This document shows positions 4,410 to 42,039 of a stretch of DNA of 64,000 nt, in pieces (position 1 is the stretch's first letter; every line of letters begins with the position of its first letter). The DNA comes from Morinoia aosen (lineage: Eukaryota; Arthropoda; Malacostraca; Amphipoda; Talitridae). Location: contig CM059566.1 of NCBI GenBank assembly GCA_030386875.1, forward strand, positions 43,126,068-43,190,067, given 5' to 3'. Both the position numbers and the translations under genes were made by a program. The notes beneath the pieces were generated by a model. That model was not told where the DNA came from. It was given only the letters and a program-made list of their open reading frames with translations, and ran no database searches.

Positions 4410-4583
4410 TTAAAATGCCACTTCTTTGATCCAAGCGAGATAGTCGGGCTTGGCGACCGGCACATACAGGCCCGGGAACTGCTCCAGCCCGCACCCGTAG
4501 CCTTGAGAGACGACGCCCCCCAGCACCCACACGCCGCCCTTGTGCTGGCTCGAGTGGTACACTAACGGGCCTCCTGAGTCGCC
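4410..4583 (-). CDS. protease coding exon 8 (catalytic Ser, stop)
   Basis: Begins GDSGGPLVY, with catalytic Ser369, continues [13 protein letters not shown] and FPGLYVPVA, and ends in a typical helix, WIKEVAF, then TAA at 4412-4410. I saw no AATAAA on this strand within about 300 bases past the stop; the nearest is near 3590. Confidence 0.92.
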
Positions 4584-7500
4584 CTGTGGAGAGTTCTTAT
4601 TTCTTTATACATTTATTTAGTTTTTGTTAGTTTGTTTATTTATTTATCGTACACAGTGAATCAAAACATGACAGCACAGTATAATTTGTACTTTTTTGGA
4701 CTGATGGAAGTTGGAGTCCGAAATGTCTCTTATTAAATATGATTCTTTTCCCTAAAATTTTCCTCGTTTTTAAATTCTCATTGATTTGCGATTGAAGCAA
4801 ACAACTGACCCGTTTATAAATGGTCGATGAAGTACGGAAATCATACAAGTAACATTTATCAGCTATTTACCCCGATAAAAATTCAGCTGTTGTGTAGGCC
4901 CAATGATTAGGTTTCTCGTCACAAAACCCCTAAATGGAATAATCTGTACTCGTGAGGTACTAAATTCTACATAACAGACTTTCACGAAGCACTTTTTGTT
5001 GTTCCATTCGAAAGATTCGAAGAATAGATTCTTATTGTTCTTCCATCGAATATTGGAAGTTTGATGCGATAGCTACGAACAAATCAACAATTAGCAGTTA
5101 TTCATCTGCAGCTTTCAAACAGCTTTAGCGAGAGCCCCCATTTGATTAACTCCTACCAAATGCAGCCATACATATAACGATAGACAATCTATCCGTATAT
5201 GAAAAGTTCGATTCTGTAGAGCTGGTCCCAATCAGAAAATGTTACTATTCAACGAAATCAAAGTAGACCTGTTCCTATGGAGTTTAGATTCACCGACACG
5301 CCTACCTGGCAGGAGTCGACGCCTCCGCCCCTCTTGCCAGCGCAGAGGAAGGTGTCACTCGTGATGCCCTGAGGCCACTTGGTGGCGTAGCTGGGCAGTA
5401 ACTTGTACGAGGCGTCGCACTCCTCTGAGGGGAACACCGTCACCTCCGCCTCTTGAAGGATGGGGCTGCTGTCTCCCCCTGTACATGGATGGTAACTTCG
5501 GGTTCAAATTTAATTGAAATCCACTACATCATTGGAATGCAGGTGCCCTATAAGAGTACCATACAAGATTGCTCTATACGAGTGCCCATTGGAATGTGAC
5601 ATCACCTCTTATTGACCTTATTCGTACGTAAATGAATTAGTCTTAGTTATTCAACTAATACGATGTTTGATACTAGTTGTGAATAACCAGGACTAATTTT
5701 GATCGCACCAGTTTAAGTTCGCATATGATGATGTCGTATGCCTGTGAAAAGGAAAATAAAACTTTCCAAACAAACTCCATTGGAGCACTCAGGAATTCGG
5801 AATACAATACTCACACAAATGGTGCAGTCAAGTTCTTAAAAATACTTCAACTTTTCGATTCATCAGCCCTATGAGCTATTACATACCAAAAACTTTGAAT
5901 GATATTGACGACGAAAATCTTGATTAATTAGTATCAGCGCAAGCTAATCATTAGAAATAGAAGTAAATAGAAGTAAAAATCAAAAGCAATAAATATCTGA
6001 AGCAGCAGAGCGGGAAAATCAAGCTGAAGTACCAGGAAATATTTGTTAAAATTTTACTTCGACTTTGAAAGTGTTGAATTGAAAGAAATGATTCAATTAT
6101 CTGCTTTAATTCATTTTTTAGTTCAATTTTTATTTCTTAGTAAAAACTGAAATTAGTTTGAAAAAATGGCTCATATTTTCATGGCAGAAATTCTGCCTGG
6201 AACTTAAAAGCATTTTGTTGCAAAATCTGCGGCACATTTTTAATTAGCACATTCTCGTTGTCATAATGTACGACTTTTTGCTGCAGTTATAAATCACTCG
6301 CAGAACCGTTTTAATTCATCACTTCGAGTACTCATCCTTTCCCCTTCCAGTGCTTCTATTTTTGCGTTAGGATAACACATGAATTAATTTCAATCAATAT
6401 AGATAAACAGCGACTGTAAAACGTGAATTTAGTCGTCATGCGTTGTTGGTGTCCCGTTTACGAGGTGGGAGTAGGGACGGATGCACCAAGCAAGGAAGCC
6501 ATAAATTGTTCACTATTACATACAATCTTACTTATTAATACCCGTGGAGTGTTTATTTATTGGTTTACAAAACTAATGTCCAACATTTCATGTTTCGACT
6601 TTATTGGAAATAAACTGCTTTTCTTTTTCTGGCGTCCGCTTCTACCGTCTCTCTGGGACGCTCATAAAAATGCTTAATGACCGTATCTGTGATAAGAGTT
6701 TCACCAGTGCACGAGAACAAGAATAATTTAATCGCGCGTACTATCAGGATGGATATATTTGTTTGTCATCCACGTCTGAAAAATTTATTGAAGGAAAATC
6801 TTGAATCCCGTCATTTTTGGCAGGCCGTGTACACTAGGTAATTATACCACTCACCAAACGCAGTGGCTCCCCAGCCCGTGATCTTGACTGTCTTGTTGAG
6901 GATAACATGCTGAGCTTCGGTTGCCCAAGGCAGACAAATCGGTGCCACTCCCGCCTGAAGGAAAAATAAAAAAGTGGAACTGTTATGCTAAAGTTTGATC
7001 GATATTGATTAGCGTGAAGGATACAACTATGGCTATCTTAGAGAGTGAGATATGTGCTCTAAACGTGTAATGTATGTCTTCATTCGATTTTTGTTGCAGA
7101 TACCAACACAACAAAATGCCCTTATTACGATATATACTTGTAAATCTCTTCCGTTGATGTTGTACGTAGGTAAGATAAGCTGGTTTCAGTCTCCCTAACG
7201 ATACTACGAAGGTGTTCCAAGGGGAGGAAGGAAGAAGGAAGAAGACACGATTTAGTATGGAGTTAAGGAAACAGTGAATCAGTGCACAAGGCGCGTCTCC
7301 ACACTCGGCGCATAAAAACAATACGACTGGAAAAAATACACGAAACAAGATGAGAGTTGACGAGTAATAGCTGCTGAAAAAATAACTGCAGTGAACAAAG
7401 AGAAGCAGTACACGTACGGCAGTCCAAAAAAAATTATTTCAGAAAAGGGAAGCCTTCCTAGCTTCCAGCTGAGAGCTCCCACATTTTCTTCCTGAGAAGG

Positions 7501-10500
7501 AGCACAGATTCCCATAGATGCAGCAGTTTGCTCACCCTGAGAGTTCAGATATTGATTCATTCCGTAATAATGTCATGTTGCACTTACATGCGTCAAGCTT
7601 GGACTTTTTTAGGGAAAGGCAACACATAAAAATCACATGTTGAGAACAAGTTTCTTAGAAAAAAAGAGAAGAAAGAAAAAATGTGTATTTCCAAGTTGTC
7701 ACATGAGATATATACCAACATATTGGCTTTTAAAAGTTTCTTAATATAGGACATCCTAAAACAAATGTTCCATACGAGGAGTACTAATTGATAAACCATC
7801 CGACGTGTGCAAGTAGATAAGCCATACGAGGCATAATAATAAACAAACTATACGAGGTGTACTAATAGACAAACTATCAGAGGTGTACAAGTAGATAGAC
7901 CATACGAGGCATATTAATTGACAAAATAAACGAGGCGAACTAATAGACAAACCATTCGTGGTGTGCTAGTAGTCTAACAAAAGTTCTATACTAGGAGTAC
8001 TAATTGACAAACCATCCGAGGTGTAAAAATAGATAAGCCATACGAGGCATAATAATAGGCAAACTATACGAGGTGTACTAATAGACAAGCTATCAGAGGT
8101 GTACAAATAGATAGACCATACGAGGCAGATTAATAGACAAAATATACGAGGCGTACTAATAGACAAACCATACGTGGCGTGCCAATAGTCTATCTTGTCA
8201 AGGGTAGTTGAATGAGAAATGAAAAATGTGCCCTAAAAATATGCAAAGCCCTATCACCACCAAAAACGTATTTCATATCTTCTCGATATTCACCACATCA
8301 TGCGGACATGGGTACATGGGATAAAATAGAGATACAGTGTAAGCCGGTTACCACTCATGATTGACAAATATCTACAAAATATTGGTAGAAATGGGTAAAC
8401 AAATATATACTCAATATCAAAATTCATAGCTTGTACAACATACGGACAGAAAGATAATTTTACTACGATTCATATGCTCAAATTGCACTTTATTTCATTA
8501 ATTATATTTGACATTAATCCGATTCACAGAAACGCCCTCTGGGGAAGTGATAGATCTTGAATCATTTCGCTAGTGCAATCAAATTTATTAACCGGATAGT
8601 TTTTGCGTAAAGAAATGCAATAGAAACATGTATATCTATATATGTAGATACATATATATACCTACACACGTACACATACATATTAATATATATACTTATT
8701 GAAAATGAAATATTAGAAAAAAAATACATATATAAAATAAAAGATAAAAGCAACCTACCATCTACTCCACAGAAAATGACAGTTGAGCTCACTGTAATCC
8801 TAAGAATTTTTCGCAAAAAAAATAACTAAAAGGAAAAGAAGACCACGAAAAACATAAAAATGAGCTGTTTTTTAATTTCTTCACAGAAATTTTTAAGAAA
8901 AATCAGGTTATAGTCAAGAAGCAACACAACTCTTCAGCATTATACGGACATGTGTACGTGGGATAAAATGGAGTAACATTGTGGCCGGATATCACATCTG
9001 AGTGGAGAATATTCACAAAATTTGGCACATATAGGTAGATTAGGCCTTGATCCAAAGTGATAATTTTAATAACAGAAATTTAGAGTTTTTTCCCATTTGA
9101 AAGTTCAGTGCTAGTGTGCGCTGAACGCACGAAAAAAATAAATAAATAAACAGACTAAATGCAATGCTTAAATTACCCCCTTCCCCCCAGCTCAGCCGAA
9201 AATCGATTGAAAACATCTTCGAGAATGATTTTGAAATAGCGAGACAACGTTAGCCAAAATTTAATTCATTATAAACTTTGAACAACCCTCACATCTATAA
9301 ACCTGTTTATTGGTGTACACACAAAATGTATTTCATGGTATATTTGTCATACGGACGTTAAATATTAATACAGAAAGGAGAAAGAAATAACGAAATAAAG
9401 ATGAGGAAATACTCCTAATTATGGAAAGAACGTTCGTTCTGCTGCATTGAACTGACGGCTGTGGTGCTCATTGTTGTCGACAGAAATAAGTAAGATGAAT
9501 ATATGAATCGCTTAGCAAACGTCAAATGAAATAGTTTCTAAATTTCTAACAGAAATTTCAGGAAAATTACAATTTCTGATAGATGGGAAGTTCATACCGA
9601 AATGCTGCAGGCCCTATGACAGAGATGCAAAATGACGTGACACATTTACTCTAAATTCTTTTCCTAAAATAGAAAGTATAATGTGCTGGTGCTGTCTATC
9701 ACAAACATTATTTTAAGGTTAAAGCTGAATTTTTTTAAAACGAGCAGTTCGAATATATTCAAACCGCTTACTACTCTTCCTTTTTGATATCTCGATTTTT
9801 GAGCTCAGATAAACAATCGAATGAACATCAACTACTCAAAACAAATCTCAATTCAAAACCAAAAATTTGCAGTCACTATCATGCAGTCTTCATAAGTCCA
9901 CTTTACAGAGTGGGATTAAAAAATCAACCAACCAGAGTAGGATTAAAAAATCGACCAGATCAAGCAAACACAACCAGAGTAGGACTAAAAGTTCAACCAA
10001 CCAGAGGAGGATTAAAAAATTGACCAGATCAAGCAAAAAAAAAACAACCAAGAGTCTGATTGAAGAATAACAGATAAACCAATCACCCAAGCAAGCAACG
10101 AACTGTAACAGGGAGAACTCACCCTTGTTCGGATACGGTCGGCGACTTTTATGAGGGCGAGGTCGTGATAGGAGGCAAAGTTACTCTTGGCCATGTAGTC
10201 AGGGTGCACGACGACCGTCTCGACGGAGTGGTCCTCGTGTCTGATGCCCTCGTTGGTGACGCTGTGGTCGTGCTCGCCCAGCCGCACCACGTCGGGGTCT
10301 CTGCGAGCAGTAAACCACCTCATCTACGGTCTTTTTTATGCTGATTTCGTTGATATTTTTCGAAAATATTATTGCTATTCATTGGAATGAATGACTTATT
10401 ATTATATTAGTCAATGAATGACTAATTTTCATTCCCTCCAATGAATTATTATTTCATCATTATTCCCAGCAATAAATGAGCAATATTATTCCTTACAAAC

Positions 10501-13500
10501 AGTAATGCCAATAATGAGCACTAATCGTGTGAGCATAAAGTATTACAATTTCCTTTACCCCGACTTGCATCTAACTCGCTAAGTAAGAGCAAGTTATGAC
10601 CAGAATAAATATTTGGTGCTATCAGAAAGCTAATTTTTAAGTGTATCGAATATATCGGCCGACAACTTTAGAGCTAAAAGTATGTATTCTCTTTTTAATA
10701 GAAATATCTCATACTGCTGAAAATAATTCACAAAAGACCAGTCGCAAGATTTCTGAGTACACTGTCAAAAAAAACGCTAGAAAATTGTTCATTTTGTTTT
10801 GAACCAGGAGAAATGCTGAGCGTGTTATCCTTTGTCGTGTCTTCGAACATTACCAGAAGCATTTAAAGCAGGAATAACATTCATAAAGGAATAGCAACAA
10901 CCCAACATTCTCAGCAAAGGAAGAAAGCTCACCCGAGGACGAGGCAGTGAGCGGCGGTGAGCACCCAGCGCTCGTTGAGCAGCACCCCGTCACAATACCA
11001 GGTGACGGTGCTGCCATCAAGGCGGTGGCCCAGCAGGGCCTGGACCCAGCAAATATTGCTTTGTCAGTGCAAGCCTCCGAAAATATTATAATACCTAGCT
11101 ATTTAAACCTTGTATTATAAAACAAGATGGCTGACACGCATTCTGATAATTTCATTTCAAACTTCTCAACTGGAAATTGAAACATTCCGTAGAATCGACG
11201 AGTTGGAAAAGAACTTGTATTGTTTTTCATATGCAAAAACTATTATGAAAGCATTGTGATGTACTTTACATATTTTTTCTGAATCGTTTGCAGTATTTTT
11301 ATTTTACCTAGAATCTAGAAACTGTATAACACGCGCTGTACAGCCGGCAGCGAAAGTTCTTTGGTCGACTCGATTACACTGCAAGCAATTTTTCTTTCTA
11401 AAATCCACAAGTTTGAGCTTTTTTATTAAAATTTGAGTTCTAAGCATCTATCAGCCCAACAGAGCCACTAAATGGTTCAATTTTTAAAACAACTGAAATT
11501 CAGGTTAGAAAAATACTCTCAGTGCAAACAAATTGGCAGAAGAACTTTTGCTACCGGATGCACCGCAATTTTCCACAGAAACTAACCCTTTACTTCAAGT
11601 TATGCATTGAGACTAAGTTAATTACTAATGATAGCGTCAGTTGATGGTTCTAAAATTTTAACAGGATGTAAAATTATATCATCCTAAAATGTAGATCTGG
11701 CACACCACCATAAGGCAAGAACCGTTCCTTTAGTACTTGATATTTCATGCAGGATAAATACACTATATGCATCTATGGTGGGAAGCAGCGCACTCTGACG
11801 TTTTTGGAATTAGTATAAATTATGGCGTGAATACATAGACGAGAATTCTTGTGAGTTTAAACGAAAAGATTATATTATAAGCTAGTTAAGGCTTCCCTAA
11901 GCGCAACAAATGTGTTGGAAGAGAGGAAAGCACCATTTAGAATGGAATTAAAGAAACGGAGAATTTGTGTACAAGGTAAGTCATGCAACCTGCCTATAGA
12001 AACGGTATGACATAATTTAAAAAAGTTTATGTAAAACGCTAAAAGGTGGAGAAGAAAGTACTAGGTGGTGAAAAAAATAGAGGCCAACCGTAAAAAGGTG
12101 ATCCGTAGCGAAACAAAAATTCCATTCGAAAGCAATAAGGCCTTCCTAGCCTCCAGATCGAGATCTCCCATTAGGGAAATAATTCTCCACAAATAAGCCC
12201 GAGAAAGCCTGATTTATTAGTGATTTTTTTTCCAGCGTTTTATATTGTCATGCTGTTTTTAGTGTATTTTGAAATAATCTGGCCCTTTAATAATAGTAGA
12301 TAAGTCCAAACCGGCGGCTTGTAGCAGAGGAGCAAATTTCTTCGCCCACAATATGAAATTTAATTCGAGATGATTCTTGCACTTCGCATTCGTACATTAT
12401 TGCGAGAAATGAATTTTATCGAGTAACTATATCAACAAACGCGTGAAATAAAGCCTTCTACATAAATAACAGTAACCACGATACAAGCGCTCTCTAGGTC
12501 GTAATTTTTGTAACCTCACGTGCGGGAGCGGAAATTTTATGTACGGGTGACATGTAAAATTCCCACTTCCGATATCGCACGAAAAAATTTCTTGAGCTAT
12601 ATGATCAAGTTCTGTAGCTGCCGACACACTTTTAGTGGTCGAAGGGGACGTATTCGCAGAGCTTTCAGCGTCACTCAAAAACATGCACTCCATTTTATTT
12701 AAAAAAAAACGACCTCATTAGAACCTCTCATCGCAGCTGCCCCGCATGCAATTTCATTCATTGGAAAAATACGTGGGATAATTTCATAAAAGCGAAGCAT
12801 TCCAAATTGCACGTGTAACAATAGCAAATATTTTATGCGCGTGAAATTTGCAACGAAGATTAGGTTAGATGTTAGTTTAAGCCTCCCTAACCACAACAAC
12901 GGCGTTCCAAAGAGAAGGAGGAAGGCACAATTTAGTATGAACATGAGGGAGAGCAGAATCCGTGTACAAGTGCATAGAAACAGTTAATCGAGAAAGAAGT
13001 TCCAGAAACAAGATGAAAATTGAAGGAGAGAGTAGTAGGTGCTGAAGAACAGGACAGCAGTGAACCGAAAAAAGTGGTTAGTAACAAAATAAAAAACCTA
13101 TTTTATTTCAACAAAAGGAAGGCCTACCTAACCTTTAGCTCGGGACTTCACATATTCCCCTTGAAAGTGCTAATTCCCATAGATAAAATAGATGAGTCTC
13201 TCTGAGGGAAAATTAGGAAGCATTCAAAAATTTCCTCGGAATTTTCACGGAGCATCAATTCGAAAGGGAACGACAAGCGCTTTTTGATGAAAAATATTGA
13301 CAAGGGATTTTAAAAAATGGGTCCTAAAAGAATCTTCATTAACTCCAATATATCAGATCAATTAAAAAACATTTATACAATCCTGAGGACTACCAGTTTC
13401 ATTATCATTGCATTTTGAGTATAAAATTCTTCATGCACCGGAGCGTAGATAAGAATCGGCGCGAATACGCATGCTGTTCATTACGCCGCTGGTGAAATCT

Positions 13501-16500
13501 GGTCAAGTATGATGGACTTCTACCTCGACGGATGTCTCAAGTTGGTGTAGATTTGCAGGTTTTCATGGTAAACTCTTCCTTGTCAGTCTCCCTTAAACAA
13601 AAGTTCAAGGGTGATACATGGATGGACTTTACTGACAATTTAACATCGCCAAATGTTGAGATCAATGTTTCCAGAAAATGCTCTCTCGGAAAAACCCATT
13701 AAGAATCAATATTCTTTCAGAATATTGTATTCCAAAAGTGATGAAAATGAAATCAGTATTTCTGAGGATTGCATAAATGCGTTTTTTAAATCCATCCGAT
13801 ATTGTGCGAGTAATTAAAAATTCTTTTAGGGCCCATATTTAAAAATCCGTGTATAAAATGCAGGACAAGTTTGGGACCCACCATCCACGGGTGCGTGTTT
13901 GCAGGGGCATCAATTCCTCCAGCAACAATTCGGCGGAAGTCAAAAGATACTTCCCTCTTGATTCTGAACTGAGGGCCAGACAACTTGATCAGATCGGACA
14001 GCGAGGGTTTAGAACCGCTTCTCTCGTTGTTTAACTTGGAACGAACTGCTGTCAATGTTGGCTGTTCGCGTGGTCGCAGAGGCTTCAGAAAGATAGCCGG
14101 AACGAATTTCGGTCTTGAATTCACGCCGCTGCGAGTTGGAGCGATAATCCGACCGCACTCTGGCAAACATTGAATTTCCTTCGTGAGCTTCAAGCTCGAA
14201 CATAGTATCGCATGATTCAAACTCTGTAGTGAAATTACGGTGTTTTATCTCAAAATGTCATACCGCTCACAAAAAGCGATTTGATACGTCCTCAAACGAA
14301 AAACAAGATATGCGAATTTATTTATTAGACGCGTAAGAAAGCTTAAAACGAAAACATGTAGTGAGATAGTTCCGTATAGGTGTCGCATTTTTTAATAATG
14401 AATAAGACTGCGAGTCATTTCCATACTTACGTAAAAAGTAAGATTGCATTAAAATATATTTCAGTTTAGGCCTCCCTAATCGCTAAAAAAAAAAGCGTTT
14501 CGAAGAAAGGAAGGCCCCATCTAGTATGTTGATGAGGGTACGCGAAATGTATGTATAACGGGCTTAGAAACAGTCAGTTGAAAAAGAAGTTCATGAAACA
14601 AGATAAAAGTTGAAAAAGAAAGTATTAGGTACTGAAAAACATGATAGCAGTGAATCGAAAAGGGCCTACCTAACTCAACTCGGGCCCTCATATTTTCAAC
14701 CTGGGAGTGCCAATTCCCATAGATACAATAGTCGTATCGCCTTGAGGAGGCGTAACAAGTAATAGAGAATGAAGATTACAGCTTTCAGTTCAAAAAATTC
14801 AGCTCTGAAATAAAGACGTACAATATTGTTTTAAATTCCTTTTCCGTTAGAGTAGTCAGTGTCTCAGTGTGAAAGCGTCAAGGGCTAGACCATACTCCCT
14901 CCACGGGCTAGACTGAAGAAGCATTTCTTTTTGCAAGAAACTTTTTGCTTCTGCTGAGGGCTAGAGAAAATGTATTACCTTTCCAGTTTGCTATCTGCTT
15001 AACCGTACACCGGAGACTGCGCGCATGCTGTCGATACATTTTCTAAGACCGAAACCTTACGTCGTTGGGCCAATAATGAAAATTTTTCATTAGTTTGGCA
15101 AAATTAACTGCAGCATCCCTGCTCTCTGTACCAATATCCTTTCTCTCTGGCAAAAGGATTAGTGTGTCGCAAAAGCTGTCATATTTTAGACGATATTCTT
15201 ATCCAATGCTTCTACCAAATTTTCAGCACTTCGTAATGAAGGTGAGGGCATTTAAAAGTTTTTCATGCACATGGAAAATGTAGGCTCGAGTATCTTAGCA
15301 TTTTTCTGATGAAAAGAAGGTTCTTATATTTTTCCATTTGGAAGCTCTTATTTTTTTTAAAAGGAGAGCAAGACATTCAGATTAGATTAGAAGTTAGTTT
15401 TTAGCCTCCCAATCTACAACAGAAAGTTTCCAGGAGAGGGAGACTCCATTTCGCATTAAATTTATGGGAATGGAAATCTACACACAAAATGAGTCCTCAC
15501 ATCCTGCGCACAGAAACAGCAAGGTCGAGACAAGATTAAGATGGAACTTAAAAGTTGACGATGTGAATTATAGGCACTGAAAAATAGACAGCAGTGAACC
15601 GAGAGAAGATGGTTCGGAATAAACCAAGAAACTATTTTATTTCAACAAGCATAGCTGGCGTTCAGCTCAAAACCTCACATTTCGCCCCTAAAATAACCTA
15701 CTTCATTGGAAACTGAAAGGTATGTCTTTAAGTTAGAAAGAAGGCTAATAACCCCGCACTTGCGGGTTCGGTCGCTAGCTCAGCATACGGGCGAGTCGTC
15801 CATTCAGTCACCAGAAAGAGTCCGCATCCGACTTTCAATTGCTTGTATTTCTTTACATCTGACTTTTTCTACAGGAACGTTCTGTTCCATGCATGGCCGG
15901 GCAAGCACACACGGTAGACGTTGTCTGTCAATAAAACTGCATATACGAATTTTATCTACTGGAGTTTTTTTGAATTACAGAACGCTGAACATTGCTACTT
16001 AAAGGCGTAATTTGAACCAATATGTCAAATTGAAGCATTTTAATTCAACTCGACCAATGAATAATTATTGAATGTCCCTTGCATTCATCTACAGCGTTTC
16101 ACATGTATGTTGCTTCAAAAAACATCAGTTCGGTAGACTAAACGCACCATCCAAGACTATCTGCCACAGCTTATTATTATTATACAAGAAAGTTTTAGCC
16201 TCCCTTAACCACGACATAGATGTTCCAAGAGAGGAAAGAGGAAGGCACCATTTAGTATGGAGTTGAGAAAACGCGGAATCTATGCACAAGGTGCACAGAA
16301 ACAGTAAGCTAGGAAAGAAGTTCATGAAACAAGAAAAAGTAGAAGAAGAAAGTAGTAGGTGCTGAAAAACAGGACAGCAGTGAACCGAAAAAAGATGGTC
16401 CGTAACAAAACAAAAACCTATTTTATTACAACAAAAAGGAAGCCTACCTAACCTTTAGCTCGGGCCCACACATGGTTCCCCTGGGAGCGCTAATATCTGC

Positions 16501-19500
16501 CACAGCTAGCTACATCCCGGCCCCCAGAAACTAAAGATAAGAAACCTAAGCCATATTTCCCAATTTCATGTTAGATTCCGAGAGTCATTTTAGGAGAAAC
16601 AATGTTTATTCTTATATTGAATCAAGGCCTTTTGTTTCAATCGGATAATACTCCTATTTTTTTGCCGAAGCTCGTTTTAGCGCGGTCATTGAAATTTTAT
16701 ACATCTCCGAGAGTCAAATTGCATTCTGAATCAGTATCACGCATTAAACGACATAGAACCCGCAATAAACAATACAAGATGGTTGGAAAAGTTGTAGAAA
16801 AAAAGTGAATCCCAAAATTTTCATTAGCCCAAGCTTTTCAAAAGAATACGACACCACGCCAACGCTACGCCGCAGACCAGGCATTAAATAAATGGCATTA
16901 TTATAGTATAGTTAGTCATGCTCAACCGTTGTCCGTGCAGAACAGTTATACGTACATAACATTTTTTCATAGAGAATAGTGGTTATTCTTCAGAACAGGG
17001 ATTCATGAAGGACAATAAAGAAGAATATTATATTCATTGATTTCGGTATTAATTCATCGGAAAACATGCAGCACAAACAACCCGTTTCTCTACACTGTAT
17101 AATTGTCTCGCCATGCCCTCTGTGTTGAATTAGTGTAAATAGATCACACTAGTTATTTGAATCCTTATTACCCATCCACAATAGAATAATTAATAAAGGC
17201 AGTACACCGTGACGCGTAGGATTTAGTATGTTCTTCGCCGTGTGTACATTTATAGGAACGAAGGTAGAATCGTTAGTTGTGTTGTCAACTTGTCATATAA
17301 TATTCAAAGAGAAAAAACGTTTGCCCTTCAAATCTGTTTTGAGTTGTCCGGTATTGATATCGAATTCGGCCAGCCACAACAACTAAATGTCAAATGTATA
17401 TAATATGAAAAAATGTTCCATTCACACACTGTTGACGGAAATGGACGATCAATGTTTGTTACGCACTTCAGAGCTGTTGTTCGATACTTTTCTCGCGCAT
17501 TCCATGCTCGGCTCATGCAACGTCATCCACCTGAGGTCTTTCAGGTACATGCCTTAGTTTGGCTTACACTATCGCCACGTACCATCCAGGGCCAGCTGCT
17601 ACTGACAGCGTCACGGCCGCCAACAACAGAAATTTGATTCCTGATCACTTCCCGCGCTGCACGGGAAAGCGACGGTGACAGCAAGGACCCACCGAAAGTA
17701 GAGGTAGAGGTCCTGGTCCCACAGTCTGTCGTATTTTCAAACCAGTGAATCGGTCAAGTGCGTCAATTTATCACGTAAATGCAAGAATGGTACTTGAATC
17801 TGAGATTGAAGGTGAAATATTGGTGTTATGTATTATGTGTGCTGATATTTTTCACTTTGTAGCAGGATAGGAACAAAATTGTAGGAATCACTTGAAAGCA
17901 AAAAAAAGTTAATTTTCCCACTCCCTCTAACAGTTCTGATGATCAGTCAAAACCCGTACTCTGGACTCATCTTTCTAAAGCTTTAGATGCGTTTCTTAAG
18001 AAGAACCATTTCCCCTATTAAACAGTTTCGCTCTCTTGCTCCATCATCCTCGCTCTCTGCATCCACATGCGATTAGTAACTAGTTAAGAGAAAGTAGACG
18101 GAAAAATATTCCAGACCTCTCCGATTTAACCGATGGACTAGACACTACATGCGGACTTGGGGTGGATGTCTATGAAAGTTACCTCGAACTCAGAGGAATA
18201 CGAGATTAATTTGACGAATAACCAATGAATTTGAAAAGACTTTTATGCTCGTCAATGTCACTTAGACCACACACACAAGAAAGCAAAAAAAGAAGTACAC
18301 TGAAAAAACTTGTATTAGAAGTGCATATTTATTCAGTTTCTGACAAAGACATGAGCCGCAGCTGGTAAAATCTAGGCCCGAACTATGAACCATTATTATT
18401 CTTTGTTCAGTAACATATACCACTTGAATAGAAATGCGAGACAGAGGAACTAGCACCTATCACTGTTCAGTAGAAAACTGAACAAAATTTACTTCCTCTC
18501 TAAATGACGGAAGCGAATGATATCAGACGTGAAGTGAATAGAATAAACGTAAGGGAAAGTGTACGTAAAAATTCAGCAACCTAACTGCAGCAAGAAAATG
18601 TTTGGGCGAGTTCATTGACTGTTATAAAAAATTTCATATGCAAGTTTATTTATAAATGCTCAGTTCAAACTTCCAAGAGATTCAAATGTTTTTACGTAAC
18701 CTAATCAATCAGGCGTAAGTTTGATTTTTTGATTAAAGGGCTGTTACGTATTTATGAATTAAAATTATGAATTCAGTGTTCATGTCAGTGAAAGAATGCT
18801 GCAGTATGAGAAAGGCAGTTCAGCTGATATATTCTCTAACATTTAAATTGATTTAAAAGCAAAAAACTTTGCGCTCAAGATTATTCTCATCACTGCTAGT
18901 GGCTGCATTAGTCATGGTGATAAAAGAGCACAATGTTATTAAAAGAAATCAAATTTATCAGCTCATTTTCTCGTATAGAATATTCTGATGAAAGCTAAAT
19001 TTCTGTCTTATCATAGGTAGAGATGTTCTTGGTTGTACCTAAACAAAATTCATAAATTCCGTCAGGAAATTATGTAGACAAATTCATTTAGACACTATCA
19101 TAAATTGTTCACATATTCAAAATGACTAAGTGTATTGGAGCATCCGTCTAGAAGGTAAATATGCGGTAAAAATTTTTTTTTACCAAAGAAACAGATTTTC
19201 ATGCAATATTTCAAGGCGAATAAACTATTCAAATTCGAAGGAAACTGAGCCGAGTTTTAAAAACGAGAACTCATTTTATGGACCATTTTCGAAAACATTT
19301 TAGAAGTACATTGTATTTTCACGTCCGAAGCACAACCATAAAATAATTTATCCATCTCTGCATTGCACATAAAATGAAATAACTGGATTTGCCATCAATA
19401 TTTGTTTGAGCATATCCAGATCTGCCTCACCTGGTTCGTTGCGGGGAGCGGGGACGAGCCTGTAGACGGAGGATGTTGTGTTTCTGACCAGTCTCTCTGC

Positions 19501-22500
19501 ACGAGTGAATCAAATCGACCTCTTTCTTTAATAGGTTTAAAATGTTAGCATTTTGGTACGAAAAATTTGAAAACTCAATTCATTTGCTCGAAAAATGGGA
19601 AATTTTAATATAGAATGTTTGAAAATCAGACCTTTTCATTTAGAAATCTTTGGATATACGAATATACTTCATCAAAATGTTCAAACGTGGATCTTTTATT
19701 TGAAAATGTTGAAAAATATTTACGTAACTTCTATATTTTTCATTCTGCAACCTTTCTGCCATGAAAGATTGAAAACGCGAACATTCTACTTTAAATTCAC
19801 AGTAAAGAAGAAACTATCATTCCAAAAAGAATCAGAATTCCACGATAGAGCGTGAAGAACAGGGCGAAGAAAATAATCCAACTGTAAATCCTAAAACACA
19901 GCGCGAAAAAATTTCAAAAAGAAAAACTTGGCTTTTATTCAACAAGTAAGTACAAATAGTTGAGTGCTGAGGGTAAAATATTTTGAAATCCTTAATACCT
20001 TAAGCTAGTATACAACACAATCTAATATTCATGTTGGTTTGGAAATTAGCAAAGTATAAGAAAAATCAAGTTCCAGAAAAAATCGATAAAATCAAATATT
20101 AATCCGAGATGAAGCGAGTGCAAAGTAATCAATGAATTATTATTGTTTTCTGACACCCATGGTATCTAACCTAATAATACCCGTTGTGTGTTTATTTATT
20201 TATGTTTGGTGTCCGCTTCTTAAAAACATAGGATGTCTGAGTTTGCGGTATCATGGATACCAAATTCCTCAGTATAACATTAAAAGATGGCCTTTAGCTG
20301 CATTGATACGTTTCAATTGTACCAGGATGTGTTCTTTTAGGATAGGTTTGGTTAGATTAGGATAGGATAGGTTGGCATAGGTTAGATAATATTGACAGAA
20401 TTTTCATAAGAGTCCACTAAGGAATTTCCACGGGTCCTTCTACTACCTAAAAATATCCTTGGTTAATTTGTTTTGAGTCCGCTTCTTCCATTTCTCTGCC
20501 ATGCTCATAAAGATAGCCATAACTAATGGTAATTAAAGGCTATCTGTGATGCGAGTTTCACCAGTGCGCAAGTATAATAATATTTTTTATCACGGGTACT
20601 GTTAGGATAGATATATTTGTTAGTCATCCGAGTGTGGAAAGTTTGTTCAAAAAAGGTGTTGAATCCCGTCATTTTTGGCGGGCCGTGCACACCAGTCATT
20701 TTGATAATTAACGAGTACAATTTTCCTCAAGTGAGACAGTTTTTTGAATTAATTTTATTTGTTGGATAAGGGTACTCTCAGCGAGCCAATACGAGAGCAG
20801 AAGTGGAAGTCTGAACTTTGTTTAGTGGAACAACTAGACATGCTCATATTTTCTAATTTTAAAAATTTTTCTCTGAAGTAAAGTAAAAAAGCAGCCAGAA
20901 TCTCCAAAACGAGGAAAAAAAACGTCCTCGTAACTGAATACTACCATTTACAAAAATTTGTGGGAGCGTCATCTCTTCAACAACTAAGTAGTAAAATGCA
21001 CCAAACATTAAAGTTATGAATGCACCCAACATTTCAGGTTCATATAAATATATTTCGGGAGTTCTTTCCAGAGTACGGCTCAATGTTAAACCCACTGCTA
21101 CTAAGATTAATTTCGACTCATGATGTAAAAAAATAAACTAAAGATCGATTATTCACTAGTTTGGGGCATACAATTTATCATTAACGAGAGAATATTGTGC
21201 TAACTTTCAATGAAGATATTTTGGCATATGTAAGCTGCATAAGTAGGACAAACCGCTCAGTTAGGACAAACCGCTCAGTTAGGACAAACCGCTCAGTTAG
21301 GACAAACCGCTCAGTTAGGACAAACCGCTCAGTTAGGACAAACCGCTCAGTTAGGACAAACCGCTCAGTTAGGACAAACCGCTCAATTAGGACAAACCGC
21401 TCAATTAGGACAAACCGCTCAATTAGGACAAACCGCTCAATTAGGACAAACCGCTCAATTAGGACAAACCGCTCAATTAGGACAAACCGCTCAATTAGGA
21501 CAAACCGCTCAATTAGGACAAACCGCTCAATTAGGACAAACCGCTCAATTAGGACAAACCGCTCAATTAGGACAAACCGCTCAATTAGGACAAACCGCTC
21601 AATTAGGACAAACCGCTCAATTAGGACAAACCGCTCAATTAGGACAAACCGCTCAATTAGGACAAACCGCTCAATTAGGACAAACCGCTCAATTAGGACA
21701 AACCGCTCAATTAGGACAAACCGCTCAATTAGGACAAACCGCTCAATTAGGACAAACCGCTCAATTAGGACAAACCGCTCAATTAGGACAAACCGCTCAA
21801 TTAGGACAAACCGCTCAATTAGGACAAACCGCTCAATTAGGACAAACCGCTCAATTAGGACAAACCGCTCAATTAGGACAAACCGCTCAATTAGGACAAA
21901 CCGCTCAATTAGGACAAACCGCTCAATTAGGACAAACCGCTCAATTAGGACAAACCGCTCAATTAGGACAAACCGCTCAATTAGGACAAACCGCTCAATT
22001 AGGACAAACCGCTCAATTAGGACAAACCGCTCAATTAGGACAAACCGCTCAATTAGGACAAACCGCTCAATTAGGACAAACCGCTCAATTAGGACAAACC
22101 GCTCAATTAGGACAAACCGCTCAATTAGGACAAACCGCTCAATTAGGACAAACCGCTCAATTAGGACAAACCGCTCAATTAGGACAAACCGCTCAATTAG
22201 GACAAACCGCTCAATTAGGACAAACCGCTCAATTAGGACATACCGCTCAATTAGGACATACCGCTCAATTAGGACATACCGCTCAAATAGGACATACCGC
22301 TCAAATAGGACATACCGCTCAAATAGGACATACCGCTCAAATAGGACATACCGCTCAAATAGGACATACCGCTCAAATAGGACATACCGCTCAAATAGGA
22401 CATACCGCTCAAATAGGACAAACCGCTCAAATAGGACAAGCCGCTCAAATAGGACAAACCGCTCAAATAGGACAAACCGCTCAAATAGGACAAACCGCTC

Positions 22501-25063
22501 AAATAGGACAAACCGCTCAAATAGGACAAACCGCTCAATTAGGACATACCGCTCAATTAGGACATACCGCTCAAATAGGACATACCGCTCAAATAGGACA
22601 TACCGCTCAAATAGGACATACCGCTCAAATAGGACATACCGCTCAAATAGGACATACCGCTCAAATAGGACATACCGCTCAAATAGGACATACCGCTCAA
22701 ATAGGACATACCGCTCAAATAGGACAAACCGCTCAAATAGGACAAACCGCTCAAATAGGACAAACCGCTCAAATAGGACAAACCGCTCAAATAGGACAAA
22801 CCGCTCAAATAGGACAAACCGCTCAAATAGGACAAACCGCTCAATTAGGACAAACCGCTCAATTAGGACAAACCGTTCAACTAGGACAAACCGCTCAATT
22901 AGGACAAACCGTTCAATTAAGACAAACCGCTCAATTAGGACAAACCGCTCAAATAGGACAAACCGTTCAATTAGGACAAACCGCTCAATTAGGACAAACC
23001 GTTCAATTAGGACAAACCGCTCAATTAGGACAAACCGTTCAACTAGGACAAACCGCTCAATTAGGACAAACCGCTCAATTAGGACAAACCGCTCAATTAG
23101 GACAAACCGGGCTTTTCTAGCGAAGATAGACTGTAGTTGATACACATTCGATGTTCCTAGCGATCAATCGTCTTCTGTCCTGTTGAAAGTACATTATTTA
23201 TTATCTGTTCACATTGCAACTGTGGAATTTATAATTCATGTCCTGCAATCAAAATTATGCCGAGATTCTACTACAAAAAAATTCAACTGCTAAGTTTCAG
23301 AACAGTCAACGCTTGTTACGACAGGAAAGTAGTTAACTTAGTCCTCATTTGAGGAAAATTAATTTGGCCAAATTATATGGTACCATTTTCTTTGAACACC
23401 AATGTAGTTAGGTGAGATTGGAAAAGATAATAAAACTCGCTTTTTATCTTAGAAACCAGTGTGAAGGACTTTAAAAACGGAAATAACATTTTCAGACGAG
23501 GGTCTCTGCATGGAGTCATAATGACACAAACGATCAATATAGTGAAATTTCAGTGATTCTAGACTATAGTACCAGAGTAACTTACATGCCAACCAGACAT
23601 AACCCAACTTGAGAATTTCTATGCTTAACCGTTCTCCACATGAAATTCGACTAGAGACTTATGCTACACGTATTCTTATAGTCATTATTAAGACTGCTAT
23701 TATCTTTAAACTCTTGCAGCCTCCCTACGGTGTAATAGATGCTCACGTTTTGAAGCATGTCTACCTCTCAAAAATTTTGATGTTGCATCTTGTTGTGAGA
23801 TTATGTCTGCACAGAGAAAACTAAGTTCATAATATTCATTGTGGTGCTGAAACGAACAGGAGCTTACATAACTTTTCAAGAGCTTTCGAGAAGTTATAGC
23901 GCACATGAACAACTGTTTTTGAAAAATAAAAATAAAAACTCCGAAAGAGGTGCATTACATGCATATTTCACTAAGGTATTCGATGCATACCTTCTAGATT
24001 GCAAATATGCATTACAGATATGTTTTACGCGGGTGAAAATGGATTTTTACGCGGATGAAGACGAAAGCTTGTTGTTCAAAATTTCGAGTTTCGAACTCAC
24101 CAGGGGCTAGAGGACAGCACACCATGCGCAGCAAGCCTCTCCTGCCACATATTTGGTCTGAGAAAGTTTCAGGCCCAGAATTCCTCCTCCGTGGAGGGCA
24201 GTCGGAGATGAGGGTACATCTCCCCTTCTGGCCGCTGCGCGATATGGTGCAGTCACGCGAGGGCGAGTCTGTCGAGCCTGGGAATACCAAGCCTGGGCAA
24301 AGAATTTTCTCGATATTAACTTTTATCTTTTTATAACTTTGTCTTTCCAACTCTTAACTGTGATAAATTCCAATTGAACTCCTAAAAACTATATTAGTTA
24401 TTAACTTTCAATTGATTTGTTGTACGTAAATATGCTTTAAAAATGAACTTAGTTTATTTACTCATTTAAAGAACTATATCAATTAATTTTATTGTGTATT
24501 GATATACTAAATAAACTTTAACTGTGCATTTAAAAGCTACATACATGTTAACTTTGCAGCGAAAAACTAGATGCATTTCAATTGTTCATTGACGAACTCG
24601 ATTAATTTAAAAAAAAATCTTGAGAACTTAATACTCTAAGAATGTCAAATTGAGTAAAATTTTTAAAGCTATTTAAACCAGTATGCAACCATTACAAATA
24701 AAATTAATAGCCTTTTAAACTTTCATCTCATGTGAAATAGAACGATCTTGTGGCATTAAAAAATAAGACAAGTAAATTTCAATCACCAATACTTTTATCA
24801 TAAGTAAATTTAACGTAACCCCGTTCTTGTAACGCACGAGGTTCTTCTTAAATATCGGCCAAAATGTATCAAATGACATTCTCATTTCATGAACAAATAT
24901 CATCAATACATAAATGTACAAATGGGTCTTTGGTTTCATTTCATTATTTCATAGACATTCTAAGTAACCTCACACATTCAAATAGCTTCTCACCTTGACT
25001 CGACACATGATGGAAGGATAGCGAGACTCCCACTACAACACTGAGCCACGGCACGGAAACCAT
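4410..25063 (-). CDS. clip-domain trypsin-like serine protease, 8 coding exons
   Basis: Secreted zymogen of the arthropod haemolymph type. Coding exons, in transcript order: 25063-24994, 24292-24101, 14159-13882, 11039-10933, 10300-10123, 6954-6855, 5478-5306, 4583-4410. All junctions are GT-AG and phases agree (1,1,0,2,0,1,0), giving 423 residues. Residues 1-23 form a signal peptide. The clip domain has Cys38, 49, 55, 72, 82 and 83. Cys89-Gly90 is the usual tether to the catalytic chain. A linker ends in Arg164, followed by IVAGG, a tryptic activation site. The catalytic triad is His211 (TAAHC), Asp262 (HDLAL) and Ser369 (GDSGGP). Asp363, six residues before the serine, predicts trypsin-like cleavage after Arg or Lys. 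Position 215 (chymotrypsin numbering) is Gln in VVSQG instead of the common Trp. The clip domain puts it with clotting, prophenoloxidase-activating and Toll-pathway proteases; which of these it is cannot be told here. An alternative exon 3 lies at 17583-17725. Confidence 0.9.
5306..5478 (-). CDS. protease coding exon 7 (S1 pocket)
   Basis: Acceptor ATGTACAG, donor TGCCAG|GTAGGC. It encodes [23 protein letters not shown] and VDSCQ, with Asp363 at the base of the specificity pocket. The intron falls just before GDSGGP. Confidence 0.9.
5646..5755. repeat. ~110-bp dispersed repeat, copy 1
   Basis: TTCAACTAATACGATGTTTG followed by GATGATGTCGT, shared in order with 25897-26010. It lies in protease intron 6. 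The class is unknown. Confidence 0.55.
6526..6837 (+). mobile_element. Helitron-like non-autonomous element, copy 1
   Basis: It begins A|TCTTAC and TTAATACCCGTGG. It ends with a short hairpin (CCCGTC, ATTTTT loop, GGCAGG) followed by GTGTACACTAG, as Helitrons end in a hairpin and CTRR. There is no coding part. The base after CTAG is G, not the expected T, which lowers certainty. Confidence 0.5.
6855..6954 (-). CDS. protease coding exon 6
   Basis: Acceptor TTTTCCTTCAG, donor TTTG|GTGAGT, phase 1. It encodes APICLPW, whose Cys pairs with the pro-region Cys-Gly in clip proteases, and VKITGWGAT, the conserved GWG turn. Confidence 0.9.
7180..7545 (-). repeat. ~330-bp dispersed family copy
   Basis: Matches the 1.9-kb copy in reverse: CTCCCTAACGATAC at one end, then GTGCTGAAAA-like and CAGTGAAC segments, and CCCATAGATGCAGCAG at the other. 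It lies in protease intron 5. Confidence 0.65.
7774..8205. repeat. tandem array: 26-bp unit in two 216-bp blocks
   Basis: Units like ACGAGGTGTACTAATAGACA plus AACTAT repeat about 16 times. Seven units of 26 bp plus one of 34 bp form a 216-bp block that occurs twice (7774 and 7990), with matching variants at matching places. It lies in protease intron 5. Confidence 0.82.
8277..8400. repeat. paired intronic repeat, copy a
   Basis: CGGACATGGGTACATGGGAT and AAAATAGAG, then a CCGG-containing segment and ACAAAATATTGG, matching 8936-9062 in order. Class unknown. Confidence 0.45.
8636..8705. repeat. AT-rich TA/CA microsatellite
   Basis: Degenerate TATATG, TACACA and ATATAT runs in protease intron 5. 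Confidence 0.6.
8936..9062. repeat. paired intronic repeat, copy b
   Basis: CGGACATGTGTACGTGGGAT and AAAATGGAG, then GGCCGG and ACAAAATTTGG, parallel to 8277-8400. Confidence 0.45.
9907..10049. repeat. tandem array, alternating 27- and 42-bp units
   Basis: The unit core AGAGTAGGATTAAAAAATC is followed alternately by AACCAACC or GACCAGATCAAGCAAA; the pair occurs twice. The array ends about 70 bases downstream of the donor of exon 5. Confidence 0.75.
10123..10300 (-). CDS. protease coding exon 5 (catalytic Asp)
   Basis: Acceptor CTGCTCGCAG, donor ACAAGG|GTGAGT. It encodes VRLGEHD, VVVHPDY and HDLALIKV; the Asp of HDLAL is Asp262 of the triad. A short tandem array (9907-10049) starts about 70 bases into the following intron. 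Confidence 0.9.
10933..11039 (-). CDS. protease coding exon 4 (catalytic His)
   Basis: Encodes ALLGHRLDG, a [12 protein letters not shown] segment and VLTAAHC with the catalytic His211. Acceptor GGGTCCAG, donor CTCGG|GTGAGC, phase 2. The Cys before the His and the Cys after it form the conserved loop disulfide of S1 proteases. Confidence 0.9.
11880..12180 (-). repeat. ~330-bp dispersed family copy
   Basis: Reverse copy in protease intron 3, diverged. CTTCCCTAAGCGCAACAA, CACCATTTAGAATGG and GGCCTTCCTAGCCTCCAG mark it. Confidence 0.6.
12858..13207 (-). repeat. ~330-bp dispersed family copy
   Basis: Reverse copy in intron 3. GCCTCCCTAACCACAACAA, CACAATTTAGTATG, CAGTGAACCGAAAAAAG and AATTCCCATAGAT appear in the family order. 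Confidence 0.68.
13882..14159 (-). CDS. protease coding exon 3 (version 3b), linker and activation site
   Basis: Acceptor GTTTGCCAG, phase 1 in, phase 0 out at CCGTGGATG|GTGGGT. It encodes ECGRIIAP, a basic 70-residue linker, then [10 protein letters not shown] and HPWM, which runs into ALLG of exon 4. The linker holds many Arg and Lys residues, so further processing sites are possible. Confidence 0.85.
14462..14747 (-). repeat. ~330-bp dispersed family copy
   Basis: Reverse copy just upstream of exon 3b, in intron 2. It ends with the palindromic ATACAATAGTCGTAT motif that other copies share. Confidence 0.65.
15380..15710 (-). repeat. ~330-bp dispersed family copy
   Basis: Diverged reverse copy in intron 2: TTAGCCTCCCAATCTACAAC, CAGTGAACCGAGAGAAGATG and AAAACCTCACATTTCGCCCC. 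Confidence 0.58.
16190..16500 (-). repeat. ~330-bp dispersed family copy
   Basis: Well preserved reverse copy in intron 2 between exons 3a and 3b, running from TTTTAGCCTCCCTTAACC to CTGGGAGCGCTAAT. Confidence 0.68.
17583..17725 (-). CDS. alternative protease exon 3 (version 3a), activation region
   Basis: This 143-base stretch is open and has an AG acceptor (ACGACAG) and a GT donor (ATG|GTACGT). Entered in phase 1 it reads Asp-Cys-Gly, then a Ser/Thr-rich linker, then [11 protein letters not shown], and ends SSSWPWM in phase 0. The regular exon 3 likewise begins Glu-Cys-Gly and ends HPWM with the same phases, so either can join exon 2 to exon 4; using both would break the frame. The isoform would be 378 residues long, with a linker 45 residues shorter and Ser instead of Arg before VVGG. 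Alternatively it is a decaying duplicate or belongs to another transcript. That it is a homologous exon is strongly supported; that it is used is inference. Confidence 0.72.
20165..20695 (+). mobile_element. Helitron-like non-autonomous element, copy 2
   Basis: Begins A|TCTAACC and TAATACCCGTTG. It ends with hairpin CCCGTC/GGCGGG and GTGCACACCAG|T. It shares the copy 1 body (GTCCGCTTCT, GAGTTTCACCAGTGC, GTTAGTCATCC-like) and carries an extra 250 bases between two GTCCGCTTCT blocks. Confidence 0.52.
20339..20390 (+). repeat. degenerate TTAGG-like patch
   Basis: GGATAGGTTTGGTTAGATTA and further TAGG/GTTAG words in about 50 bases. It resembles the arthropod telomere word but is degenerate, and it sits inside Helitron-like copy 2. 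Confidence 0.4.
21241..23109. repeat. 18-bp minisatellite, ~104 units
   Basis: The unit AATTAGGACAAACCGCTC repeats without spacers for about 1.87 kb in protease intron 2. Variants form blocks: GTTAGG units first (about 8), a long homogeneous AATTAGG block (about 48), ACATACC and AAATAGG blocks occurring twice in the same order about 300 bp apart, then a mixed end with GTTC variants. The period is a multiple of three and the unit lacks stops in several frames, so both strands show reading frames of about 650 codons (TNRSIR-type and ERFVLI-type hexapeptides). I take these as by-products of the repeat, not genes. Confidence 0.93.
24101..24292 (-). CDS. protease coding exon 2 (clip domain)
   Basis: Encodes the whole clip domain with spacing C-x10-C-x5-C-x16-C-x9-CC, ending in CCPLAP. 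The acceptor is TTTGCCCAG and the donor CCTG|GTGAGT, phase 1. That phase accepts either version of exon 3: G|AG gives Glu-Cys-Gly, G|AC gives Asp-Cys-Gly. A second possible acceptor 13 bases further in keeps a compatible reading but has a weaker pyrimidine tract. Confidence 0.85.
24994..25063 (-). CDS. protease coding exon 1 (signal peptide)
   Basis: Starts at ATG 25063-25061 and encodes a 23-residue hydrophobic leader beginning [12 protein letters not shown]. It ends CAAG|GTGAGA in phase 1, which joins G|GC to exon 2. A clean acceptor (TTTCAG) lies 14 bases before the ATG, so an upstream non-coding exon is expected. Confidence 0.82.
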
Positions 25064-37521: not shown

Positions 37522-37781
37522 TAATGGACGTAGGTTAAGAAGACGAGACTCTTGGAGTTTGTATAATCAGTACACACAGCAGGACACACGTTTACATTAC
37601 GAAGGGTAGCGGTGGAGTAGGCTCCAGCCAAGCCCGAGAACCACGAGCAGAGATCCACAAGAACCATGAGCTCAGTTCTCAACGCATAGTGCTGTCTAAA
37701 TACATTCTTACGCAAGAGCACTGTAACATTATCAGTATTATACACATATACATTCAAGGTGCTACATGAAAGGTTTCAACA
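37522..37781 (-). repeat. Copia 3' LTR
   Basis: 260 bp, same termini as the 5' LTR. The preceding purine-rich GAGAAGGAG overlaps the end of the gag-pol frame. Confidence 0.93.
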
Positions 37782-37788
37782 CTCCTTC

Positions 37789-41631: not shown

Positions 41632-41779
41632 GTTTCTTTCTCTTTCACCGTTTCTGTCTCACACAGCACTAACAAATCACCAACTTCTGTTCTCGCTGTC
41701 CCGGGCTGTTTTTCGCTTCGGGACTTAAGATAACCTCACTTGATATTGCTTCATCGGAAGGTTTACTGGGCCCATAACC

Positions 41780-42039
41780 TAATGGACGTAGGTTAAGAAG
41801 ACGAGACTCTTGGAGTTTGTATAATCAGTACACACAGCAGGACACACGTTTACATTACGAAGGGTAGCGGTGGAGTAGGCTCCAGCCAAGCCCGAGAACC
41901 ACGAGCAGAGATCCACAAGAACCATGAGCTCAGTTCTCAACGCATAGTGCTGTCTAAATACATTCTTACGCAAGAGCACTGTAACATTATCAGTATTATA
42001 CACATATACATTCAAGGTGCTACATGAAAGGTTTCAACA
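41780..42039 (-). repeat. Copia 5' LTR
   Basis: 260 bp. On the element strand it begins TGTTGAAACC and ends CGTCCATTA. No difference from the 3' LTR was seen. Confidence 0.93.

What the first reader, a model, noticed from the sequence alone, without database searches (positions are those of the whole stretch)
13882..17725. Duplicated, apparently mutually exclusive activation exon in a clip-domain protease
Two exon-3 versions sit in series on the minus strand: 17583-17725 and 13882-14159. Both have AG/GT borders, enter in phase 1, leave in phase 0, begin (Asp/Glu)-Cys-Gly and end Pro-Trp-Met. Either joins clip exon 2 to catalytic exon 4 in frame; both together do not. One gene could thus place the same clip and catalytic domains behind two different activation sequences, so two upstream proteases could switch on the same enzyme. 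I know of no standard clip protease described this way.
Basis: partly seen in the sequence, partly recalled or inferred. Interest (0 to 1): 0.85.

Follow-up and report, generated by a model that had tools for sequence, protein, structure and literature searches.

The report
Two alternative activation exons, one protease
A protease gene, probably of a crustacean, carries two interchangeable versions of the exon that holds the enzyme's on-switch, so splicing may decide how the same enzyme is turned on, but no RNA evidence was available to show that both are used.

Summary
One minus-strand gene (25063-4410) has two alternative exon 3s: 3a (17725-17583) and 3b (14159-13882). Each joins the clip exon to the catalytic exons in frame (378 or 423 residues); both together or neither gives an early stop. 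They are the only exons of this pattern in the window, and 0 of 2000 random introns has one. No second set of clip or catalytic exons was found nearby.

In 38 of 38 other catalytic-domain start exons read, the residue before the mature end is Arg or Lys. Exon 3a has Ser there, as has paralogue C; paralogue B has Glu. Exon 3b has Arg-Arg before Ile-Val, but one extra residue before Gly-Gly. The likeliest reading: splicing swaps a form that trypsin-like enzymes can activate (3b) for one not cut at the usual bond (3a). Use of either exon in RNA is inferred. Nearest precedents: Drosophila Hayan (spliced linker between constant domains) and insect serpin-1 (alternative specificity exons).

The parts
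24994..25063 (-). candidate exon 1: start codon and signal peptide ([24 protein letters not shown]), leaves in phase 1
   Evidence: one of 3 candidates in 27 kb upstream (the other two are overlapping starts of one frame near 46.45 kb); donor AAG|GTGAGA; joins exon 2 in frame. Inferred.
24101..24292 (-). exon 2: clip domain with six cysteines
   Evidence: Pfam CLIP aligns over its whole length but at 11.6 bits (11.0 in the 3b form), under the cut-off of 20
21244..23109 (.). 18-bp tandem array (about 104 copies) inside the intron between exon 2 and exon 3a
   Evidence: not known to bear on splicing
17583..17725 (-). exon 3a, 143 nt: linker Cys, short linker, VVGG start of the catalytic domain; no basic residue just before VVGG
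   Evidence: poorest acceptor tract of the 12 compared (4 of 12 pyrimidines)
13882..14159 (-). exon 3b, 278 nt: linker Cys, long basic linker, RR|IVAGG start of the catalytic domain
   Evidence: acceptor 8 of 12 pyrimidines
10933..11039 (-). exon 4: catalytic domain with active-site His (TAAHC)
10123..10300 (-). exon 5: active-site Asp (YHDLALIKV)
6855..6954 (-). exon 6: APICLPW, whose Cys is the expected partner of the linker Cys in exon 3
   Evidence: pairing predicted for the family (PMC1761132, passage)
5306..5478 (-). exon 7: specificity-pocket Asp (VDSCQ, trypsin-type; numbering recalled)
4410..4583 (-). exon 8: active-site Ser (GDSGGP) and stop codon

Best explanation
One clip-domain serine protease gene has two alternative activation exons. 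A transcript uses either 3a or 3b; a transcript with both or neither is frameshifted and would be degraded or useless, so reading frame alone enforces the choice. Both products share the signal peptide, clip domain and catalytic domain and keep the linker cysteine that should tie clip to catalytic domain. They differ in the activation segment: 3b gives a long, basic linker ending Arg-Arg before Ile-Val, which a trypsin-like upstream protease could cut; 3a gives a short linker with Ser before Val-Val-Gly-Gly, non-basic as in the single-exon relatives, so it is not cut at the usual bond by trypsin-like enzymes and needs another activator, another bond, or stays a zymogen. Shown: exon anatomy, frames, no second set of exons found, P1 residues. 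Inferred: that both are spliced in, the exclusion, and the cleavage chemistry.
For: Exact frames and open isoforms. Only two such exons in the window; 0 of 2000 null introns. One set of exons: the clip search has one strong hit, itself (E 4.5e-37; the other 6 hits have E 0.569 or more), and on this chromosome the catalytic search lists no other match nearer than about 1.8 Mb; the trypsin search's nearest listed others on it are at 38.2 and 44.96 Mb (best candidates only). Constraint: if the two exons share an origin, they have diverged until the linkers no longer align, yet both keep frame, splice dinucleotides, Cys, Gly-Gly and Pro-Trp; simulated neutral drift of 0.3 substitutions per site (no indels, 4000 runs) leaves 0.6% (3a) and 0.3% (3b) intact in all of these. 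Exon G+C is 58% and 51%, against 57-68% for exons 2 and 4-8 and 38% for the introns. 3a matches the single exon 3 of paralogues C and B over the exon (0 and 2 of 2000 shuffles), 3b does less (109 and 284 of 2000). P1 contrast: 38 of 38 others basic.
Against: No transcript evidence at all. Exon 3a has the poorest acceptor tract of the 12 compared (4 of 12 pyrimidines; others 6 to 11), so it could be a fading exon. 3b's extra residue before Gly-Gly makes its fit to the standard activation pocket uncertain. The constraint argument assumes that the exons arose from one another; if 3b came recently from another gene, its intactness says nothing about its use here. The P1 yardstick was picked by a profile match starting at position 1 or 2 and so favours ordinary starts; a clip homologue without IVGG (L015) falls outside it. 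Linker-only similarity of 3a to C and B is weak (59 and 157 of 2000 shuffles). No complementary intron pair longer than 12 nt (no shuffled control). The exons lie 3.4 kb apart, so steric hindrance is not available. Neither paralogue shows a second exon 3 in the scanned introns, so the pair is not seen to be conserved.
Confidence: 0.55

Rival explanations
1. Exon replacement in progress: 3b has taken over and 3a is a recently retired relic that still looks intact.
For: 3a has the poorest acceptor tract. 3b brings in a basic P1, the rule among the 38 other exons read. Neutral drift of 0.05-0.1 substitutions per site would leave 3a intact in 42-16% of simulations.
Against: 3a keeps the family pattern shared with B and C and all coding features; drift of 0.2 leaves it intact in about 3%, of 0.3 in 0.6%.
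Confidence: 0.22
2. 3a is the only exon 3 normally used; 3b is a minor or captured exon, or serves mainly to make frameshifted, degraded transcripts.
For: B and C show only a 3a-sized exon 3. 3b has no other match in the genome at E up to 10 (1 match, itself, of 6 candidates scored). 3b carries an extra residue before Gly-Gly.
Against: 3b has a catalytic-domain start that Pfam extends (isoform Trypsin score 166.3 bits), a linker Cys, a better acceptor tract, and an intact 93-residue frame that neutral drift would soon break.
Confidence: 0.13
3. Fusion relic: two tandem paralogous genes were joined by a deletion that kept exons 1-3 of one and 3-8 of the other. This is an account of origin, and the product may or may not be alternatively spliced today.
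For: The linkers of 3a and 3b show no significant similarity and almost no DNA similarity remains. Tandem groups of related genes exist on C15 and C2 in this genome.
Against: No remnant of the missing exons was listed nearby, but a complete deletion would leave none.
Confidence: 0.1

Closest known systems
Drosophila Hayan (isoforms PA, PB, PD)
   Same: A clip-domain protease gene whose splice forms have identical clip and catalytic domains and differ between them (PMC10732536, passages).
   Different: There a 259-residue insert is added, both forms release the common catalytic domain, and no difference was seen in activation by microbial proteases or in downstream targets. Here one exon replaces another, and the activation bond and the first residues of the catalytic domain change.
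Insect serpin-1 genes (Pteromalus PpSerpin-1; Manduca serpin-1)
   Same: Duplicated, alternatively used exons carry the short stretch that fixes specificity on a constant scaffold, in the same kind of cascade (PMC10513286, passages and reference titles).
   Different: Serpins are the inhibitors; the variable region is C-terminal, with 21 alternative exons in PpSerpin-1. Here it is an internal exon of the protease, two versions.
Paralogues B and C on chromosome C15 of the same genome
   Same: Same exon layout, phase-1 start and phase-0 end of exon 3, same linker Cys, non-basic P1.
   Different: Only one exon 3 found in each; B's clip exon has an in-frame TAG; C has Ser where this gene has the trypsin-type pocket Asp.
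Horseshoe-crab proclotting enzyme and insect easter/PAP-type clip proteases (recalled)
   Same: Clip domain, linker Cys facing the PICLP Cys, trypsin-like catalytic domain.
   Different: One activation site, after Arg/Lys (or, recalled, Leu or His in snake-type proteases).

Membership tests
Clip-domain serine protease | N-terminal clip domain of six cysteines ending in adjacent Cys-Cys | tested here: inconclusive
   Six Cys in C..C..C..C..CC order in exon 2; Pfam CLIP covers it end to end but at 11.6 bits, under the cut-off of 20; no solved-structure match at E up to 10
Clip-domain serine protease | C-terminal trypsin-family catalytic domain with intact triad | tested here: met
   PF00089 170.8 bits (3a form) and 166.3 (3b form), cut-off 20.6; TAAHC, HDLAL, GDSGGP
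Clip-domain serine protease | Linker Cys facing the PICLP Cys of the catalytic domain | tested here: met
   Cys-Gly at the start of both 3a and 3b; APICLPW in exon 6. The bond itself was not tested.
Clip-domain serine protease | Activation after a basic residue directly before I/V-V-G-G (usual, recalled not universal) | tested here: not met
   3a: Ser before VVGG. 3b: Arg-Arg before IV, but AGG instead of GG follows. 38 of 38 other exons read are basic
Mutually exclusive exon pair | Two adjacent related exons with equal phases, neither both nor none in frame | tested here: met
   similarity supported only for the last 15 codons, besides the shared Cys-Gly start
Mutually exclusive exon pair | Transcripts contain one or the other and not both | not testable with these tools
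   No RNA data held
Mutually exclusive exon pair | A known exclusion device: too-short intron, mixed spliceosomes, or complementary intron elements | tested here: inconclusive
   3.4 kb between the exons and ordinary GT-AG sites speak against the first two; longest perfect intron complement 11-12 nt, but imperfect pairing and shuffles were not examined. Frame incompatibility remains as a device.

The most novel reading that the evidence does not exclude
Splicing of one internal exon changes the activation chemistry of a cascade protease, from an Arg-cleaved zymogen (3b) to one that trypsin-like cascade enzymes cannot cut at the usual bond and that answers to a different signal, such as an elastase-like or microbial protease, or stays silent (3a). 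It would be the protease-side counterpart of serpin-1, in a small subfamily that has abandoned the usual activation residue.
Probability: 0.3. Interest if true: 0.75.

Novelty: new variant of a known kind. Interest (0 to 1): 0.5.

Why it matters
Protease cascades of clotting, melanisation and Toll signalling are generally drawn with one activation site per zymogen gene (general knowledge, not a call). Here one gene could place the same enzyme at two places in a cascade by splicing. It would also be a handle on how a protease subfamily lives without the usual basic activation residue: the a-type exons of this gene, B and C lack it while the catalytic triads stay.

Tried and rejected
Chance decoy exons: rejected (0 of 2000 null introns). 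Two tandem genes: thought unlikely, as only one set of exons 2 and 4-8 was listed; the genome search scores best candidates only and the flanks were not read, so a diverged remnant could be missed. Assembly artefact (two haplotypes in series): rejected, as the exons share almost no DNA. Exon 3b as a repeated element: no second match at E up to 10. Exclusion by paired intron elements: no perfect complement over 12 nt, about the length a rough calculation expects; no shuffled control was run. Clip exon against solved structures: no hit at E up to 10. NCBIfam: no family for the 3b form. Similarity of the linkers of 3a and 3b: not supported; a shared 'REV' seen by eye is not significant. Exon 1 by similarity to paralogue C: no convincing match; it was chosen as a signal-peptide candidate instead. 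In one search the donor row 'C4' was cut one base out of register and is not used. Literature: of ten full-text searches, three returned nothing, one search listed 20 of 1,774, and the rest listed 3 to 6 papers; no listed title or abstract start was about mutually exclusive activation exons in a clip protease. I looked at passages of six papers. The library lacks most subscription journals, so this does not show that none exists. No related species was available, so conservation was judged only from paralogues.
Full report
What is there. The window lies at C11:43126068-43190067 of an unnamed 1.99-Gb genome. A digestive-type trypsin of that genome is closest among solved structures to 'hepatopancreas trypsin' 2f91 (E 6.1e-64; next 3.5e-46), which I recall to be from a crayfish, so the organism is most probably a crustacean; no name was available.

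The gene. On the minus strand I find eight exons per isoform: candidate exon 1 (25063-24994), clip exon 2 (24292-24101), exon 3a (17725-17583) or 3b (14159-13882), and exons 4-8 (11039-10933, 10300-10123, 6954-6855, 5478-5306, 4583-4410). Every intron has GT...AG borders. Isoforms are 378 aa (3a) and 423 aa (3b). Both exons together stop at codon 148, neither at codon 95. The catalytic domain has His, Asp and Ser of the triad, a trypsin-type pocket Asp, and the PICLP cysteine expected to hold the linker cysteine (family pairing in PMC1761132, passage). Pfam Trypsin scores 170.8 and 166.3 bits; Pfam CLIP only 11.6 and 11.0, under its cut-off of 20, so the clip domain rests on its six-cysteine pattern and position.

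More than chance. A pattern search over both strands of the window returns only these two exons; 0 of 2000 Markov copies of the 13-kb intron contain one. The exons' G+C (58% for 3a, 51% for 3b) stands above the introns (38%); 3b is below the other coding exons (57-68%). Their 15-codon ends match each other (0 of 2000 shuffles), their linkers do not (1099 of 2000 reach the score), and almost no DNA similarity remains. Under simulated neutral drift of 0.3 substitutions per site 0.6% of 3a copies and 0.3% of 3b copies keep frame, splice dinucleotides, Cys, Gly-Gly and Pro-Trp; at 0.1 it is 16% and 10% (substitutions only). If the pair arose from one another, both were constrained for most of their history. 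A recent release of one of them, or a recent arrival of 3b from another gene, is not excluded.

One gene, not two. Clip exon 2 has one strong genome hit, itself (E 4.5e-37; the other six hits have E 0.569 or more). The closest catalytic relatives are a small cluster on C15 (57-61% identity in the best exons); on C11 the nearest other listed match is about 1.8 Mb away.

The paralogues. In 100 kb of C15 two relatives have the same exon layout. C appears intact in the exons read, with a candidate signal exon, triad residues, and one exon 3 (GCGTRPIWATGRDSHPIYGLRGEKFKVGSAVGGKTTDVNGWPWA). B has one exon 3 (VCGARPPSAYGRGNRPIYDLDGFPHIVGEAVGGFPTFINGWPWT) and an in-frame TAG in its clip exon. The same pattern search finds no second exon 3 in either. 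Over the whole exon, 3a resembles C and B (0 and 2 of 2000 shuffles reach the score) more than 3b does (109 and 284 of 2000). So a 3a-like exon 3 is probably the family form, and the pair is so far seen only in the window's gene.

The activation residue. In exon 3a the residue before VVGG is Ser; in C Ser (AVGG), in B Glu (AVGG). Exon 3b reads FRR|IVAGG: basic residues precede Ile-Val, but one extra residue precedes Gly-Gly. As a yardstick I read every hit in the listed trypsin search that begins at profile position 1 or 2 and does not run through the whole domain (37: 36 fetched and read, one), plus one of the two full-length hits (L001; L002 was not read). The profile does not include the residue scored. 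All 38 of 38 have Arg or Lys (37 Arg, 1 Lys). Caveats: several are near-identical tandem copies; picking by profile start favours ordinary starts, and a clip homologue with no IVGG (L015) falls outside; these exons run on to the active-site His, unlike exon 3 here; the listing was cut off, so more exist unread. One of the 38 (L068) has ITFG in place of IVGG.

How it most likely works. The reading frame forces one exon or the other. The 3b product has a site that a trypsin-like cascade enzyme could cut, giving a mature end one residue longer than usual. The 3a product has none at the usual bond, so it needs a different cleavage or stays a zymogen. Exon 3a's acceptor is the poorest in pyrimidines (4 of 12; the other 11 have 6 to 11), so 3b may be the default and 3a the regulated form, or 3a may be on the way out. 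I found no perfect complementary intron elements longer than 12 nt.

Against what is known. Hayan-PA and -PB of Drosophila share clip and catalytic domains and differ by a 259-residue insert, with no difference seen in activation by microbial proteases or in targets (PMC10732536, passages). Serpin-1 genes use duplicated alternative exons for the C-terminal region (PMC10513286, passages; [quoted passage not shown] A lacewing venom paper treats clip proteases and splicing, but the passages seen describe alternative serpin isoforms (PMC12758981). A swimming-crab paper lists one mutually exclusive event in its transcriptome, and the passages seen do not say in which gene (PMC9021376). A paper on Drosophila MP2 gives a single activation site after Lys (PMC3829845, passages). 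Ten searches of open full texts listed nothing, by title or abstract start, on alternative activation exons of a clip protease.

Verdict. A real and well-formed pair of alternative activation exons; use in RNA and the cleavage chemistry remain to be shown. The strongest new point is not two upstream proteases, but that 3a and its relatives lack the usual activation residue and 3b brings one in.

Noticed in passing
L039-L048 (C15:35650001-35750000), gene B and gene C: The nearest paralogues have non-basic residues before AVGG although triad motifs are present; C also has Ser in the specificity pocket where the window gene has Asp, and B's clip exon holds an in-frame TAG.
   Followed up: partly
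window 21244-23109: An 18-bp tandem array of about 104 copies, 98% alike, lies in the intron between clip exon 2 and exon 3a and reads open in several frames.
   Followed up: partly
window 37522-42039: A copia-type LTR element with one open 1289-aa frame and terminal repeats that are 100% identical over 260 nt, which suggests a young insertion, upstream of the protease gene.
   Followed up: partly
window 50824-51528 (+) and 58571-59380 (-): Two cuticle-protein-like genes with proline-rich tails; Pfam Chitin_bind_4 matches just under its cut-off (23.7 and 21.6 bits against 25).
   Followed up: partly
window 16560-16150, 15648-15508, 14661-14508, 13174-12874, 12119-11917, 7294-7183, 1940-2255: Seven copies of one short interspersed repeat (the six others 68-84% alike to the query copy); five lie in the introns around exons 3a and 3b, all in one direction, so they do not form inverted pairs there.
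   Followed up: partly
L068 (C5:35608000-35608450): A trypsin-domain start exon reading SR|ITFGSPAGRREYPWQV in place of the usual IVGG.
   Followed up: no
C15:35667251-35667418: An isolated exon-7-like piece of the same subfamily with no other clear exon beside it in the fetched 100 kb; probably a gene fragment.
   Followed up: no
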